Positions 3-8,494 of a stretch of DNA of 11,851 nucleotides are shown piece after piece. The notes beneath the pieces are model-generated. The model did not search any database, had not been told where the DNA came from, and was given only the letters and a program-made list of their open reading frames with translations. The position numbers and the translations under genes are program-made. The stretch is from NCBI GenBank assembly GCA_900551385.1, contig URVS01000023.1:1-11851 (forward strand), given 5' to 3'. The stretch comes from an uncultured Mollicutes bacterium (lineage in GTDB: Bacteria > Bacillota_I > Bacilli_A > RFN20 > CAG-449). Each line of letters starts with the position of its first letter. Positions within the stretch are counted from its first letter, which is position 1.

Positions 3-149
3 AATAAAATATCAGATAATGAAATTATACTCAATTTTAAAGGTGTAGAATATATGTGTGTTTCCTTTGCTCAGGAATATGGACATCAGAAAAAATTATC
101 TAAGAAAAAAATTTTTATGGAGGTAATTCATGAATCTAGTAAATTTTAA
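3..149 (+). CDS. C-terminal fragment of a small STAS-like (DUF4325-type) protein, 5' end outside the window
   Basis: An open frame runs in from the left edge and stops at TAA 147-149, giving 48 residues. The stretch ILNFKGVEYMCVSFAQE resembles the core of STAS-like DUF4325 proteins, in which a hydrophobic strand, Asp/Asn-Phe-x-Gly-Val and a Ser-Phe-Ala-x-Glu motif follow each other. The tail is Lys-rich and ends about 27 residues after that motif, shorter than I would expect for the family. The stop lies 20 bases inside the next gene, and that gene's ribosome binding site (GGAGG, 119-123) sits within this frame, so the two are probably translationally coupled. Function is unknown; small STAS-like proteins usually act as protein-interaction or regulatory modules. 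The family call rests on one short motif and is tentative. That the frame is coding is supported by the overlap and by the lack of another explanation for bases 1-129. Confidence 0.45.
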   Translation, partial: NKISDNEIILNFKGVEYMCVSFAQEYGHQKKLSKKKIFMEVIHESSKF

Positions 150-990
150 TCAATTTCAAGTAAGAAAAAAAACATATGGTGGAGCGAATGGAAATAAATT
201 AAGTATTTGTATTGGTGATAGTCTATATATGTTAAAACTGCCTTCTCATGCAACCAAAAACAAAAATCTTTCTTACACTAATTCATGTATTTCTGAATAT
301 TTAGGTTCACATATTTTTAATATGATTGGAATAAAAGCTCAAGAAACAATTTTAGGAGAATATGAATATAATGGGGTAAAAAGAATTTCAGTTGCTTGTA
401 AAGATTTTGAAGAAGATGGGTATGTATTAAAAGATTTTGCTTCAGTTAAAAACCAAATAATTGATTCAAAATCTAATGGATACGGAACTGATATTAATGA
501 AATATTAGAAACAATAGAGCAACAATCATTAATTGATCCAGTCTTTTTATCTAATACATTTTGGGAAATGTTTGTTATAGATGCATTACTTGGTAATTGG
601 GATAGACATAATGGAAACTGGGGATTTTTATATAATCAAGGAACAGATGACATAAAAATTGCTCCTATATTTGATTGTGGCTCATGCTTATTTCCACAAA
701 TTGATGATGATATTATTGATACAATAATGAAAGACAAATCACAATTAAATGCAAGAATTTTTAATTTTCCAACTTCTGCTTTATTATATAATGGGAAAAG
801 AATTAATTATTATGATTTTATACAAAATCACGAATTTAAAGAATGCGATAATGCAATCATCAGAATAAAAAATAAAATTAATTTTGATGATATTAATCTT
901 TTAATTGATGATATACCTTGCATTAGTGTTAAACATAAAAACTTTTTAAAATTAATTATTAAAAAGAGATTTGATGCTTATTTTAATTAA
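130..990 (+). CDS. HipA/CtkA-like serine/threonine protein kinase
   Basis: This is a 286-residue protein of the HipA-like kinase fold, close in size and layout to single-domain CtkA-type kinases rather than full HipA (about 440 residues). Visible kinase landmarks are the ATP-anchoring Lys in YMLKLP (K36), a Glu in SEYLG (E56) that may pair with it, the catalytic loop NWDRHNGN (D158, N161, N163), and the metal-binding Asp in IFDCGS (D182). All are intact, so an active kinase is plausible. The start is supported by GGAGG six bases upstream. No HipB-like helix-turn-helix antitoxin is adjacent; the overlapping upstream partner is a STAS-like fragment. Its 3' end converges on the serpin gene with only five bases between, and I see no clear terminator there. 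Substrate is unknown: full HipA phosphorylates a glutamyl-tRNA synthetase, but that cannot be transferred to this shorter protein. A toxin role is possible, not shown. Confidence 0.75.
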   Translation: MNLVNFNQFQVRKKTYGGANGNKLSICIGDSLYMLKLPSHATKNKNLSYTNSCISEYLGSHIFNMIGIKAQETILGEYEYNGVKRISVACKDFEEDGYVLKDFASVKNQIIDSKSNGYGTDINEILETIEQQSLIDPVFLSNTFWEMFVIDALLGNWDRHNGNWGFLYNQGTDDIKIAPIFDCGSCLFPQIDDDIIDTIMKDKSQLNARIFNFPTSALLYNGKRINYYDFIQNHEFKECDNAIIRIKNKINFDDINLLIDDIPCISVKHKNFLKLIIKKRFDAYFN

Positions 991-995
991 AAATT

Positions 996-2399
996 TTATT
1001 TATTAGGATTTACCATATTTCCTACATAAATAGGTACATCATTCACATCATAAATAATATAAATAAATGGTTTATTTAATTGTATATTATATCCATCTAA
1101 TGTTGATTCAGCTTTATTTCCTGCTCCATAAGAAACTGATTTAATCATTGTGCCATCTTCAGAAAATGTTATTTCATTTTTTTGTTTAACTAATTGAAGA
1201 TAAACACCCAAATTTTCATCATTAAAAATATTATTTAAACTATTTGCATTTTCATCAAAAGTATTTGGCATCATTTCTTTTAATATTTCAGTAAAATCAA
1301 GAGAATAATTATTTGAAAATTTAGGAAGCGATAAATTAATATATGCTTCTTTTTTTGTTGTTTGATCTAAATTAAATAAATTAATATCTTTAGTCAAAGA
1401 AAATATATTTTCATCATTTTTACTAATATAATATTTAATTTTGATATTATTTTTATAATAATCTGTTACTTCATAAAATTTATCTTGTTCATTAATTTCG
1501 CCTATATAAGAATGATTCATATAAGTAACTTTTTCATTACTATTATTAGAATAAAATGTATCTATATAATTATTTTCATCATTAAATATATGATACCAAC
1601 GATTATTAAAATATAAAGTATTTATAAAATATATAACTGTATCATTATCATCTATTTCTAATTCTTCTTTTTTCATAAAATCTTTTTGATTTATTTTATT
1701 ATCAATCCATTCAATTATTTTATCTTGATCATTTTTAAATGATAATTGATATGCTTCAATATAATAATCTTTTAATAAATTAATATATTCTTCATTATAT
1801 TGAAAATCATTACTTAAAAATACTGAATTATACATTTGTATAGTTCCTTGTTCATTACAAAAATAATTATTTTTATATGTTTTAATTAAATCTTCTTTTC
1901 TTTTATTTTTATCTAATTTTAATAAATTATCAAATTCATTATTTATTTCTTCTTTAGTTGATGATAAAGATATATTATTCATTAAATAATATAGACTCAT
2001 TGGTGAAAAAGAATAATTATCTTCTTTAAAAGATTTTCTATACATTTCATTAGAGAAATTATTAATTGCTTCTTTAAAATCATCACTTATTGATAAATTC
2101 TTAGTTTCTAAAGAAGGATAATTAATTTCATTTAATTTTTTAAATGAAGTGCTTTCCATAACTTGTTTTTCATTTATTGTAAAATTTCTTTTTATTAAAC
2201 TACTTTTTGGCTTAAAATCAATCATTGATAAAAAAGGAATACTTAATATTACTAAAGGAGTAAGTATAGCTAAACATGTTAATGTAATTGCTAATTTATG
2301 AGATTTTTTATTAGGTTGAAGTTTTGAAGTATCAAAATTCAAATCAATATCTAATTTATTTTCTAAATCATTTTTTATTTCATTTTTAAGATTATTCAT
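996..2399 (-). CDS. Membrane-anchored serpin in the anti-sigma-factor position
   Basis: This 467-residue protein has three parts. Residues 1-34 are charged and predicted cytoplasmic, 35-57 form one transmembrane helix, and about 105-467 form a full-length serpin domain outside the cell. Serpin landmarks are FSP (131-133), a helix with S-x-x-T-x-x-E-I (146-152), NTLYFNNRW (260-268), LPKF (358-361), EDGT at the start of the reactive loop hinge (414-417), NKPF (442-445) and a terminal NP (464-465). The hinge after EDGT reads MIKSVS where inhibitory serpins have small, mostly Ala residues. Gln406 stands where the shutter His (His334 of alpha-1-antitrypsin) is expected. The gene overlaps the sigma factor gene by 8 bases and has its own AAGGAG (2406-2411). 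Known: an ECF sigma gene is usually followed by the gene for a single-pass anti-sigma protein. Inferred: the N-terminus binds the sigma factor and the serpin domain senses a protease. A plain surface protease inhibitor is the alternative. Confidence 0.85.
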   Translation of the reverse strand: MNNLKNEIKNDLENKLDIDLNFDTSKLQPNKKSHKLAITLTCLAILTPLVILSIPFLSMIDFKPKSSLIKRNFTINEKQVMESTSFKKLNEINYPSLETKNLSISDDFKEAINNFSNEMYRKSFKEDNYSFSPMSLYYLMNNISLSSTKEEINNEFDNLLKLDKNKRKEDLIKTYKNNYFCNEQGTIQMYNSVFLSNDFQYNEEYINLLKDYYIEAYQLSFKNDQDKIIEWIDNKINQKDFMKKEELEIDDNDTVIYFINTLYFNNRWYHIFNDENNYIDTFYSNNSNEKVTYMNHSYIGEINEQDKFYEVTDYYKNNIKIKYYISKNDENIFSLTKDINLFNLDQTTKKEAYINLSLPKFSNNYSLDFTEILKEMMPNTFDENANSLNNIFNDENLGVYLQLVKQKNEITFSEDGTMIKSVSYGAGNKAESTLDGYNIQLNKPFIYIIYDVNDVPIYVGNMVNPNK

Positions 2400-2916
2400 T
2401 GTCTTCTCCTTTATAATGCTTCTTTACTTTGTCTAATGTTCTTTTGTATTTAGAAGAAATAGAATCAATATTAACACCTTGTTCATTAGCAATATCTTTA
2501 AAAGTAAAATCATATAAAAATTTATAAATAATTAATTCTAATTCTTCTTCATTTAAATATTCTTTAAATTTATCTATATATGTATTAAATTCATTTTTTT
2601 GATCAAAACAAGCAATTTCATTATCTAGTTGTTCATATTTATTATTTTTCTTTAATAAATTAATAGATAAATTTTTACAAGTAGTAAGTAAATAATATTT
2701 TATTTTCTTATAATTTCTTATTTTATTTTTATTAATAAAGAATTGCATGAAAGTTTCATTAGTAATATCTTTAGCATCTTCTTGATTTTTTAAAATATCA
2801 AAACTAACAAAATAAACAAGTAATTTATATTCTTGATAAATATCATTAAACGCTCTTTCCATGACTTGTTTTGAAGAAGATTTTAAATCTTTTAAATCTT
2901 TGTTAGTGATATCCAT
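2392..2916 (-). CDS. ECF-family RNA polymerase sigma factor
   Basis: A 174-residue protein with the two-domain layout of ECF (group 4) sigma factors. Region 2 spans about residues 23-92: a conserved helix (FNDIYQEYKLLVYFVSFDIL), the acidic turn NQEDAKDITNETF that contacts the polymerase clamp, and a basic aromatic stretch (RNYKKIKYYLLTTCKN) for -10 recognition. Region 4 spans about 120-168 and includes the helix-turn-helix FTFKDIANEQGVNIDSISSK for -35 recognition. No extra C-terminal domain is present. The start has AAGGAG at 2923-2928 (minus strand), a good distance from ATG. It is the first gene of a two-gene operon; its stop lies inside the start of the serpin gene, so translation is coupled. 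Such sigma factors normally activate their own operon and are held inactive by the second gene's product. Target genes cannot be read from the window. The class call is firm; the subgroup is not assigned. Confidence 0.85.
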   Translation of the reverse strand: MDITNKDLKDLKSSSKQVMERAFNDIYQEYKLLVYFVSFDILKNQEDAKDITNETFMQFFINKNKIRNYKKIKYYLLTTCKNLSINLLKKNNKYEQLDNEIACFDQKNEFNTYIDKFKEYLNEEELELIIYKFLYDFTFKDIANEQGVNIDSISSKYKRTLDKVKKHYKGEDNE

Positions 2917-3012
2917 TTTTCTCTCCTTACATTAATAAGACAATTTTAAATAATTTTTTCGTTGGTTTATTTTAATTTTAGCAAAATTTAAAAAAAAATT
3001 TAATTAGCTTTT

Positions 3013-5491: not shown

Positions 5492-8400
5492 ATGAAAAGA
5501 ACAAGTGCAGTAGGTATTATTTCTACCGCAGTTATGTTAACAGCTTTACTTACAGTAGGTAATGTTGTTGCTAGTGCATATGGTGGAATTATAGATACAT
5601 TCTTTAGCAAAAGTAATGTTATAATGGATGAGCAAACTCAAAACGCTTTAACAAAAGGTAAAGATTTAGCTAAAGAAATTCAAGAAAATGGTACAGTTTT
5701 ATTAGAAAACAAAAATAATACTTTGCCTTTACAAAAAGCAGAAGGCCAAGAAAAATTAAGAGTTAATATTTTTGGTTGGGGAGGTAGTGATAATGGCTTC
5801 CTTTATCAAGGTGGTGGATCAAGTGAAGGTGGCTATTCTCTTGATAAAATCTCTTTATATAATGCTTTTAGAAATAATGGTTTTGAAATTAATGAAGAAT
5901 TAGCTAATGCTTATAATGGTTTACCTTATCGTAGAGAAGGTGCACCAGATCAAAACCAACATTCAATTTATTATCGTGCTTATGATCCAGATGAAAGTTT
6001 TTATACAGATTCTTTAATGAATAACGCTATTGAATTTTCTGACGTTGCTATTGTAGTCTTATCTAGAAGAGCAACAGAAGGTGATGATTTACCAAAAGTA
6101 AGTTATGACGAGAATGGAAATGCTGATTATTCAAGAAGATATTTATCATTATCTGCTAGAGAAACAATTATGTTAAGAAAGGTAACTAATAAATTTAATA
6201 ATGTAATTGTTTTAGTTAATTCATCCGCTCCAATGGAATTAGGATTTGTTGATTATTATAAAATTGGTGCATGTTTATATATTGGTTACCCTGGATATTA
6301 TGGTACAGAATCAATCGCTAAAATTATTTCTGGAGAAACTCAACCAAGTGGTCATTTAACTGATACAGTAGCATATGACCTTAGAACTGCTCCAAGTTAT
6401 GTTAATGCTGGTCCTGATGCAACTCATGTTTATAATGGTAAAGGTGGTAGATATACTGATTATGCTGAAGATATTTATGTAGGTTATAAATGGTATGAAA
6501 CTGCTAATACAGAAGGATATTTTGATAGTTGTGAATTAAATATTTATGGTAAAAATAGACGTGGATATGAAGCAGTAGTTCAATATCCATTTGGATATGG
6601 TTTAGCATATACAAACTTTTCATGGGATATTGAAGAAATTAAAGTTCAACACACTCTTGATGATGGTTCTTTAACTGAAGCAACTAATTTACAAGAAAAT
6701 CAAACATTATTAGCTAATGATGTTATTACTTATAAAGTTTGGGTTGAAAATACTGGTTCAGTTCCAGGTAAAGATGTAGTTGGTTTATATTATAGTGCAC
6801 CTTATACTAAAGGAGGTATTGAAAAATCAAGTATTAATCTTGCAGACTTCCAAAAAACAGATTTATTAGAGCCTCAAAAAGGTCAATATTTAACTTTAAC
6901 TTGTAAAGCTTCACAAATGACAAGTTATGATACTTATGATCGTAATAATAATGGTTTTATGGGTTATGAACTTGAAGCTGGTCAATACACTTTATCTTTA
7001 AGACCAGATGTTCATAATGTTAAATTAGATAAATTAAATCAACCAATGTCTTATGATTATAAAGTACTAGAAGGTGGATATAAATATGCAACTGATGAGG
7101 TAACTGGTAGTGAAGTAAAAAATAGGTTTACCACTTATACTAATACTACTTCAGGAGCAAGTTCAACTTGTGATGAGCCTCAAACAAATTATGCTTTATC
7201 TATTGATGGTAATGATGATTCAGATGATTATGATCAAAATATTACATATTTAACTAGAGCTGACTTTGCTTCTACTTTCCCTCAAGTAACAGAAACTAGA
7301 ACAATGTCTAATAATATGTTTAAAAATGTTTTCTTAGTACATAATCCATTTGTTGATCCTAATGATGAAATGCCTACAACATCTTCAACATCTACTTCTT
7401 GGACTCTAGATGACGTTAAAGGTTTAGCTTATGAAGATCCAAAGTGGCAAGAATTAATTGAACAATTAAGTGTTCAACAATTAGCTGATTTATGTGCTAA
7501 TGGTGGATTTGGTACAATGGCAATTAATTCAATCAAGAAACCAAAATGTACAGATAGTGATGGTGGTACAGGATTTACTAGTGGTGTCTCTACTGGTGAA
7601 GATGGACATGCTATTAAATATCCAGCTGCTAATGTTTTAGCAGGTACATGGGATTGGAAAGAAGCATATAAGTGGGGCCATGCTATTGGTGATGAAGGTC
7701 AAGCTTTAGGTATTCAAGGTTGGTACGCTCCTGGATGTAATGTACATCGTTCTCCATTAGGTGGAAGAAACTTTGAATACTTCTCTGAAGATGCATATAT
7801 GTGTGGTGTATTTGTTGCTTATACTGTTAAAGGTTGTACTGAAAATGGTGTATATGCATATATGAAACATTTTGCTGGTAATGATACTGATGAAGGTAGA
7901 AATGGTCAATTTAAATGGATGACTGAACAATCATTAAGAGAAATTTGGGCAAAACCTGGTGAAATTGCTACAAAAGTCGGTGGTGCTAATGCAATGATGG
8001 CATCAGTTGATAGAGTTGGTGCTACTAGGGTTACTGGTTCTTATGCTTTACTTGAAACTGTTTTAAGAGGTGAATGGGGCTTTAGAGGTTCTGTTATTAC
8101 AGATTATTATCAAGGTGGTAATGTTAACGATTTAGATGAAGGTATTAGAGCAGGTAACGATTTAGGTATGGGTTCTAAATTAAATTTCTTAGGTGCAGAT
8201 TATAACTTTAATTATACTGAAACTGCTACTCCAAGAATTCAAAGACAATTAAAGAAAGCTATTAAACATGCTGCTTATGCATATTTACATACTCAATGTA
8301 TTAATAAAGCATGGAATGAATATGTTAAAGAACATCCAGATCAAGGTGAAACAATTGATAGTGCTGTATTAATTGATTCATGGAACTGGTGGAAACCAAC

Positions 8401-8494
8401 TGTACTAGCAATTGATATTATGATTGGGTGTGGAATTGTTTGTTGGGCTTACTTTGTTATTCGTAGAAAAGAATGGTTTGAGGAGGCTAAATAA
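5492..8494 (+). CDS. Membrane-tethered, domain-permuted family 3 glycoside hydrolase
   Basis: A 1000-residue GH3-type enzyme (beta-glucosidase-like) with reversed domain order. Residues 6-29 are a hydrophobic export signal or anchor (ASA before Y30 could be a cleavage site). About 56-300 are the GH3 alpha/beta sandwich (GTVLLENKNNTLPL; RRATEGDD at 192-199, with E196 a candidate acid/base). About 408-510 are a fibronectin-III-like domain. About 650-930 are the GH3 TIM barrel normally found first. Barrel landmarks are DGGTGF (690-695), GRNFEYFSED (758-767), KHFAGND (792-798) and VITDY (868-872), with D871 the expected nucleophile. Residues 968-990 form a C-terminal transmembrane helix ending in RRK. 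All main catalytic residues appear intact. It hydrolyses terminal beta-linked (or similar) sugars outside the cell; exact specificity cannot be read. AAAGGA stands 8 bases before ATG, and 14 bases separate it from the previous gene. Confidence 0.85.
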   Translation: MKRTSAVGIISTAVMLTALLTVGNVVASAYGGIIDTFFSKSNVIMDEQTQNALTKGKDLAKEIQENGTVLLENKNNTLPLQKAEGQEKLRVNIFGWGGSDNGFLYQGGGSSEGGYSLDKISLYNAFRNNGFEINEELANAYNGLPYRREGAPDQNQHSIYYRAYDPDESFYTDSLMNNAIEFSDVAIVVLSRRATEGDDLPKVSYDENGNADYSRRYLSLSARETIMLRKVTNKFNNVIVLVNSSAPMELGFVDYYKIGACLYIGYPGYYGTESIAKIISGETQPSGHLTDTVAYDLRTAPSYVNAGPDATHVYNGKGGRYTDYAEDIYVGYKWYETANTEGYFDSCELNIYGKNRRGYEAVVQYPFGYGLAYTNFSWDIEEIKVQHTLDDGSLTEATNLQENQTLLANDVITYKVWVENTGSVPGKDVVGLYYSAPYTKGGIEKSSINLADFQKTDLLEPQKGQYLTLTCKASQMTSYDTYDRNNNGFMGYELEAGQYTLSLRPDVHNVKLDKLNQPMSYDYKVLEGGYKYATDEVTGSEVKNRFTTYTNTTSGASSTCDEPQTNYALSIDGNDDSDDYDQNITYLTRADFASTFPQVTETRTMSNNMFKNVFLVHNPFVDPNDEMPTTSSTSTSWTLDDVKGLAYEDPKWQELIEQLSVQQLADLCANGGFGTMAINSIKKPKCTDSDGGTGFTSGVSTGEDGHAIKYPAANVLAGTWDWKEAYKWGHAIGDEGQALGIQGWYAPGCNVHRSPLGGRNFEYFSEDAYMCGVFVAYTVKGCTENGVYAYMKHFAGNDTDEGRNGQFKWMTEQSLREIWAKPGEIATKVGGANAMMASVDRVGATRVTGSYALLETVLRGEWGFRGSVITDYYQGGNVNDLDEGIRAGNDLGMGSKLNFLGADYNFNYTETATPRIQRQLKKAIKHAAYAYLHTQCINKAWNEYVKEHPDQGETIDSAVLIDSWNWWKPTVLAIDIMIGCGIVCWAYFVIRRKEWFEEAK

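What the first reader, a model, noticed from the sequence alone, without database searches (positions are those of the whole stretch)
996..2916. Serpin domain as the sensor of an ECF sigma/anti-sigma pair
The sequence shows an ECF sigma gene overlapping by 8 bases a single-pass membrane protein whose outer part is a full-length serpin. Family knowledge: the gene after an ECF sigma gene is typically a membrane anti-sigma factor with a variable outer sensor. Serpins change shape drastically when a protease cuts their reactive loop. Inference: an external protease (host, competitor or own) cuts or is trapped by the serpin, and the shape change or a follow-up cleavage frees the sigma factor. I do not recall a described anti-sigma factor with a serpin sensor.
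Basis: partly seen in the sequence, partly recalled or inferred. Interest (0 to 1): 0.85.

Follow-up and report, generated by a model that had tools for sequence, protein, structure and literature searches.

The report
Serpin as bacterial anti-sigma sensor
Some gut Bacilli appear to use a serpin, the spring-loaded fold best known as a protease inhibitor, as the outer sensor of a membrane switch that controls a transcription factor, which would be a new way for bacteria to detect proteases.

Summary
An ECF sigma gene (2392-2916, minus) overlaps by 8 bases a 467-aa protein (996-2399, minus) with a 34-aa inner segment, one membrane helix and a full serpin domain.

The pairing is a conserved unit. 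Among serpins fetched from the order search, 46 of 46 full-length membrane-anchored ones with an inner segment have an ECF sigma gene directly upstream, against 0 of 33 lipoprotein or secreted ones (with eight labels corrected by eye). In the earlier 50-locus scan it is 22 of 23 against 0 of 32. Flanking genes differ.

A bipartite promoter-like element precedes the sigma gene in 20 of 22 loci, which suggests autoregulation. Few other sites in each genome match it. In one genome an exact second copy precedes a lipoprotein serpin gene.

I conclude that this is a membrane anti-sigma factor with a serpin sensor. The trigger (cutting or trapping at the reactive loop, then intramembrane proteolysis) is inferred. 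Against a simple reading: the hinge of this clade departs from the inhibitory consensus, and seven membrane-anchored serpins of other Bacilli have no sigma gene nearby. The open-access papers searched hold no description of it.

The parts
2392..2916 (-). ECF sigma factor gene, 174 aa
   Evidence: Pfam regions 2 and 4 over cut-off; NCBIfam sigma70-ECF over cut-off
996..2399 (-). membrane anti-sigma factor candidate with serpin sensor, 467 aa
   Evidence: PF00079 residues 111-465; helix 35-59 in the model; linkage to sigma genes
2298..2399 (-). cytoplasmic segment, residues 1-34, proposed sigma-binding part
   Evidence: position before the membrane helix; helix 2-16 in the model at moderate confidence; sigma binding is inferred
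2223..2297 (-). membrane helix, residues 35-59
2085..2222 (-). stalk, residues 60-105, with the family motif around SFKKLNEINYPS
   Evidence: conserved in alignment A1; residues 63-72 under pLDDT 50
999..2084 (-). serpin domain, residues 106-467
1083..1160 (-). hinge and reactive loop, residues 414-439
   Evidence: aligned hinge EDGTMIKSVS; residues 427-439 under pLDDT 50
2934..2964 (-). promoter-like element CAACGAAA-N13-TTGTCTTATT before the sigma gene
   Evidence: best match in the window to the element conserved in relatives

Best explanation
The two genes form one signalling unit: an ECF sigma factor and its membrane-bound anti-sigma factor, whose outer sensor is a serpin. The short inner segment holds sigma at the membrane (inferred). 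Outside, a protease cuts the reactive loop or is trapped on it; the loop inserts into the main sheet and the domain changes shape (inferred from serpin biology; the model only shows that insertion is compatible). This disturbs the conserved stalk next to the membrane and exposes it to a first cut; a site-2 protease then cuts the helix and frees sigma (inferred by analogy with RsiV). Free sigma transcribes its own operon, so that the spent sensor is replaced, and in some genomes further lipoproteins including a second serpin (inferred from promoter copies). Shown: architecture, linkage, conserved promoter-like element, presence of a site-2 protease family. Inferred: sigma binding, trigger, release, regulon.
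For: Linkage: 46 of 46 membrane-type serpins fetched from the order search have a sigma gene directly upstream versus 0 of 33 others; 22 of 23 versus 0 of 32 in the first scan. Twelve of the 46 (L282-L293) come from loci fetched after the pattern was seen, and all twelve fit. Flanking genes differ. ECF identity of ten upstream ORFs checked by Pfam. Promoter-like element with fixed spacer in 20 of 22, the operon's own site present in 19 of 19 genomes at up to 2 mismatches. Extra exact copy before a lipoprotein serpin. Paralogous ECF genes mostly followed by single-pass proteins with other outer parts. Independent-looking cases in L250-L253 and L032. Peptidase_M50 in 21 of 21 genomes, 20 over cut-off, though such proteins were in all 14 control genomes too.
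Against: No sigma contact shown. The hinge of this clade departs from the inhibitory consensus at P13-P9, with K/R at P11 in 39 of 53 paired serpins, so trapping may fail. L015 is a membrane-type relative without a sigma gene. L255-L260 and L264, membrane-anchored serpins in other Bacilli, have none in the fetched stretch. Homology of the inner segment to other anti-sigma segments is only suggestive: best cross score 64, but one of 200 shuffled sets also reached a best of 64. Promoter copies outside the operon are few.
Confidence: 0.65

Rival explanations
1. The serpin is the anti-sigma factor, but the outer domain senses by binding (a ligand, or a protease without being cut), or it restrains the protease that would cut its own stalk until another protease occupies it. 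No spring-like loop insertion is needed.
For: RsiV, the best studied analogue, is activated by binding of lysozyme without need for its enzyme activity (abstract and passages of PMC4183432). The hinge of the window's clade is not the inhibitory consensus.
Against: P15 Gly is kept in 53 of 53 and P14 Thr/Ser in 48 of 53 paired serpins. Some paired serpins have near-consensus hinges (L239, L245, L246; L250-L253). The model places the hinge as an inserted strand.
Confidence: 0.25
2. The serpin is an effector, a membrane-anchored protective inhibitor co-transcribed with an ECF sigma that is controlled by something else; the inner segment is only an anchor.
For: Membrane-anchored serpins without a sigma gene exist (L255-L260, L264). 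A lipoprotein serpin carries the same promoter element in G043. In three Ruminococcus loci a secreted serpin lies downstream of an ECF gene and a separate small membrane protein.
Against: In the window's family the sigma gene follows the inner segment, not the serpin: 0 of 33 lipoprotein or secreted serpins of the order set are paired. In the operons listed the ORF right after sigma is the serpin gene, leaving no other candidate anti-sigma gene in between. Inner segments are conserved within the clade.
Confidence: 0.12
3. The linkage is an accident of shared descent in one clade and has no functional meaning.
For: Distances of the two proteins correlate (r 0.88), which common species history also gives.
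Against: The pair stays together down to about 15% identity of either protein while flanks change. Similar pairs with other inner segments occur in L250-L253 and L032. Relatives that lost the inner segment also lack the sigma gene.
Confidence: 0.02

Closest known systems
SigV/RsiV of Bacillus subtilis and relatives
   Same: ECF sigma with a single-pass anti-sigma factor whose outer domain itself is the sensor, there for a host defence enzyme, lysozyme (abstract and passages of PMC4183432). NCBIfam SigV is among the weaker matches of the window's sigma, far under its cut-off.
   Different: The outer domain here is a serpin; no RsiV-type domain was found by Pfam. Trigger unknown.
SigI/RsgI of Clostridium thermocellum and relatives
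   Same: Anti-sigma factors whose outer sensor domains are swapped between paralogues (passages of PMC3413522 and PMC12484212).
   Different: Sensors there bind carbohydrates and the sigma is SigI, not ECF.
Tengpin
   Same: Bacterial serpin; latent tengpin is the top Foldseek match; its N-terminal tail stabilises the native state (passages of PMC8233489 and PMC12702362), a possible precedent for the stalk.
   Different: No sigma partner or membrane role was mentioned in the passages seen; hinge differs.
Siropins and cellulosomal serpins
   Same: Serpins of gut or cellulolytic bacteria; siropins inhibit human neutrophil elastase and proteinase 3 (abstract and passages of PMC5127057); cellulosomal serpins are mentioned in passages of PMC12484212.
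   Different: Described there as inhibitors, not as sensors; the window's clade has a non-consensus hinge and a sigma partner.

Membership tests
ECF sigma factor | sigma-70 regions 2 and 4 in a short protein | tested here: met
   Pfam Sigma70_r2 and Sigma70_r4 over cut-off; NCBIfam sigma70-ECF over cut-off
ECF sigma factor | autoregulated promoter of ECF type | tested here: inconclusive
   conserved bipartite element before the gene; transcription not measured
membrane anti-sigma factor of an ECF sigma | gene directly downstream of, and co-conserved with, the sigma gene | tested here: met
   46 of 46 and 22 of 23
membrane anti-sigma factor of an ECF sigma | single membrane helix with an inner N-terminal segment | tested here: met
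   topology predicted, not measured
membrane anti-sigma factor of an ECF sigma | inner segment binds and inhibits sigma | not testable with these tools
   no two-chain prediction; similarity to inner segments of other ECF partners only suggestive
serpin superfamily | serpin domain and fold | tested here: met
inhibitory serpins | hinge consensus P17-P9 ExGTEAAAA (as given in PMC8233489) | tested here: not met
   window EDGTMIKSV: P17, P15 and P14 fit, P13-P9 do not
inhibitory serpins | covalent trapping of a protease | not testable with these tools
   needs an assay
RsiV family | RsiV-type outer domain | tested here: not met
   only Serpin matched in Pfam and nothing in NCBIfam at E 0.001

The most novel reading that the evidence does not exclude
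The one-way spring of a serpin is used as a transmembrane trigger: cutting of the reactive loop by an outside protease snaps the sensor, opens its stalk to intramembrane proteolysis and frees an ECF sigma factor, which rebuilds the spent sensor and, in some species, makes a second, lipid-anchored serpin. Bacteria would have turned a protease inhibitor into a protease sensor, more than once.
Probability: 0.4. Interest if true: 0.9.

Novelty: new variant of a known kind. Interest (0 to 1): 0.76.

Why it matters
What bacterial serpins do for their owners, and how gut bacteria sense host or rival proteases, is poorly known (my judgement). A serpin anti-sigma would be a direct, testable protease sensor, and a case where the irreversible serpin change of shape serves signalling. 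The serpin family, paired or not, has a match in 103 of 279 genomes of one order of Bacilli, known mostly from metagenomes. The conserved element gives a ready reporter, and paired versus unpaired serpins are a natural comparison of sensor and inhibitor loops.

Tried and rejected
Mobile origin: no relative in two viral-contig scans, one phage record at 26% identity, no plasmid match.

Regulon: one search covered 19 genomes (G008 and G009 left out, their sites being weak or absent) and listed 37 sites at up to 2 mismatches; 19 are the operon's own; the reversed-pattern control gave 8. Of the 18 others I examined 14: 3 lie directly before a lipoprotein gene (G043:C79, a serpin; G037:C22; G043:C42:292), 10 lie inside an ORF of 150 aa or more, 1 is unconvincing. 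Four were not examined (G037:C7, G037:C20, G001:C12, G044:C22:26907). A weaker copy (15 of 18 positions) precedes a lipoprotein serpin in G002; seven other second serpins (L124, two in L125, L126, L127, L130, L131) had no convincing site. In the diverged clade 10 of 12 genomes have the operon's own site at up to 1 mismatch (control 2); of two further sites one precedes a 73-aa remnant of the sigma gene, the other nothing convincing.

Inner segment of L032 as a query found only itself. The hit in G175 (L238) is no sigma partner. Partners L172, L173, L175 and L183 match my serpin profile weakly, but Pfam finds no serpin in L172, L175 and L183; they are not counted.

Labels: seven proteins with a cysteine in a helix starting at residue 44 or later were labelled LIPO by my pattern and are counted as membrane type (L017, L020, L024, L049, L231, L232, L235). 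L296 was labelled membrane type but has a lipobox and is counted as lipoprotein. In the class set the script's label gives 3 membrane-type serpins with sigma and 5 without; of the five, L251 has a sigma fragment at the contig end (13.7 bits, below the threshold), L254 is by eye not a membrane type, and L257, L260 and L264 are true exceptions. Truncated ORFs and ORFs under 330 aa were dropped. Two of the unpaired counted had under 400 bases of upstream sequence. Not all hits were fetched (for example G104 and G275, truncated).

The second structure job was not used: single chains cannot test the contact.

Full report
OBSERVATION. A 174-aa ECF sigma gene (2392-2916, minus) and a 467-aa gene (996-2399, minus) overlap by 8 bases. 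The first has sigma regions 2 and 4 and passes the NCBIfam ECF cut-off. The second has a Serpin domain over residues 111-465; its best sequence matches among solved structures are Serpin48 and neuroserpin. A hydrophobic helix starts near residue 35, leaving 34 residues inside.

A REAL FAMILY. A protein search gave 39 relatives. Of 29 sequences aligned (window included), 27 share the inner segment and helix; P0021 and P0024 lack the inner segment and look like lipoproteins. A scan of genome contigs gave 50 loci.

LINKAGE. One search classed every fetched serpin of 330 aa or more with one profile for the serpin and one for sigma. Scan: 22 of 23 membrane-type serpins (helix starting at residue 24 or later) have a sigma gene directly upstream, the exception being L015; 0 of 32 others do. 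Loci fetched from the order search (L210-L249, L266-L269, L282-L321): 46 of 46 versus 0 of 33. Eight labels were corrected by eye (listed under Tried and rejected). Twelve of the 46 (L282-L293) were fetched after the pattern had been seen, and all twelve fit. Gaps run from -86 (a doubtful start) to +37 as called. Flanking genes differ. Over 53 pairs the distances of the two proteins correlate (r 0.88; largest of 2000 permutations 0.27), which shared species history also produces. Matches to the window's sigma number 0 to 6 per genome in 24 genomes, so chance adjacency is negligible (inference).

ELSEWHERE. In a class-wide sample 53 of 395 genomes match the family. Sixteen loci of that sample were fetched (L250-L265). 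L250-L253 show the pairing with another inner segment and a GIEGGAVT or GIEGAAAT hinge (L251 with a sigma fragment at the contig end). L255-L260 and L264 (seven) are membrane-anchored serpins without a sigma gene in the fetched stretch; four of the seven have their helix starting before residue 24. L032, a Lachnospiraceae genome, is a further pair; its upstream ORF has sigma regions by Pfam.

PROMOTER. Upstream of the sigma genes lies CGACRAAA-N13-TTGTYTTATT. The script found it with spacer 13 in 18 of 22; L009 and L049 also have such a copy, giving 20 of 22; L014 is weaker and L024 lacks it. In the window it is CAACGAAA-N13-TTGTCTTATT at 2934-2964 minus, an exact match to a pattern widened by one position; with 3 mismatches allowed the window has 2 matches, against a shuffle mean of 0.47. 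At up to 1 mismatch 15 of 20 genomes have a site, 14 of them the operon's own (control 1 site). At up to 2, 19 of 19 have the operon's own (37 sites, control 8). The diverged clade has CGAACGTTTT at the same offset from a similar -10 box, the operon's own site in 10 of 12 genomes searched (control 2). An exact extra copy in G043 precedes a lipoprotein serpin gene, one in G037 a 190-aa lipoprotein. Of the 18 non-operon sites, 14 were examined and 3 lie directly before a lipoprotein gene, while 10 lie inside genes. This fits a sigma that serves mainly its own operon and sometimes further serpins or lipoproteins (inference).

SENSOR SWAP. In the same genomes other ECF genes are mostly followed by single-pass proteins with short inner segments and other outer parts. 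Similarity of those inner segments to the serpin ones is suggestive only: best cross score 64; best scores of 200 shuffled sets had mean 47 and maximum 64.

MECHANISM. RsiV is the working model: its outer domain binds lysozyme, signal peptidase cuts, RasP frees SigV (abstract and passages of PMC4183432). A Peptidase_M50 member occurs in 21 of 21 genomes tested, 20 over the cut-off, but also in all 14 control genomes.

LITERATURE. Serpin + anti-sigma factor + ECF sigma: one paper, whose passages are unrelated. Bacterial serpin + RNA polymerase sigma factor: none. Serpin + anti-sigma: 13 papers, 12 listed; I read passages of three of them (PMC10059941, PMC3413522, PMC12484212) and saw listings of the rest. 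A sensor-domain search listed 10 of 43 papers, with no serpin case in the listing. Passages of the serpin superfamily phylogeny mention no sigma factor. Within these searches I found no description; subscription papers and preprints were not covered.

VERDICT. Sigma/anti-sigma pair with a serpin sensor: about 0.9. Protease-triggered change of shape as the switch: about 0.4. Both figures are my judgement. New variant of a known kind.

Noticed in passing
L033:4044-9182, L034:6285-9164, L050:6187-9149: In three Ruminococcus loci an ECF sigma gene and a small single-pass membrane protein lie just upstream of a secreted serpin with an N-terminal stretch that looks like a dockerin (my reading); ECF and serpin may be linked there too, in separate genes.
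   Followed up: partly
L172:562-2214, L175:1448-2881, L183:1028-2329: Partners of paralogous ECF genes that weakly match a serpin profile and end in a serpin-like C-terminus, though Pfam finds none: possibly strongly diverged serpin sensors.
   Followed up: partly
L255-L260, L264: Membrane-anchored serpins of other Bacilli with charged inner segments and no sigma gene in the fetched stretch; role unknown.
   Followed up: no
L117:1501, L121, L123 (genome G043): Genome G043 holds several related lipoprotein serpin genes at contig ends, one with the exact promoter element.
   Followed up: partly
L275:1501-1767 (genome G213): A second exact promoter copy precedes a 73-aa remnant of the sigma gene, apparently a broken duplicate of the operon.
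   Followed up: no
window 5492-8494: Glycoside hydrolase family 3 protein in which the C-terminal domain (residues 68-332) comes before the N-terminal domain (709-874), i.e. swapped domain order.
   Followed up: no
window 130-990: Gene with a HipA_C domain next to the operon; partner not examined.
   Followed up: no
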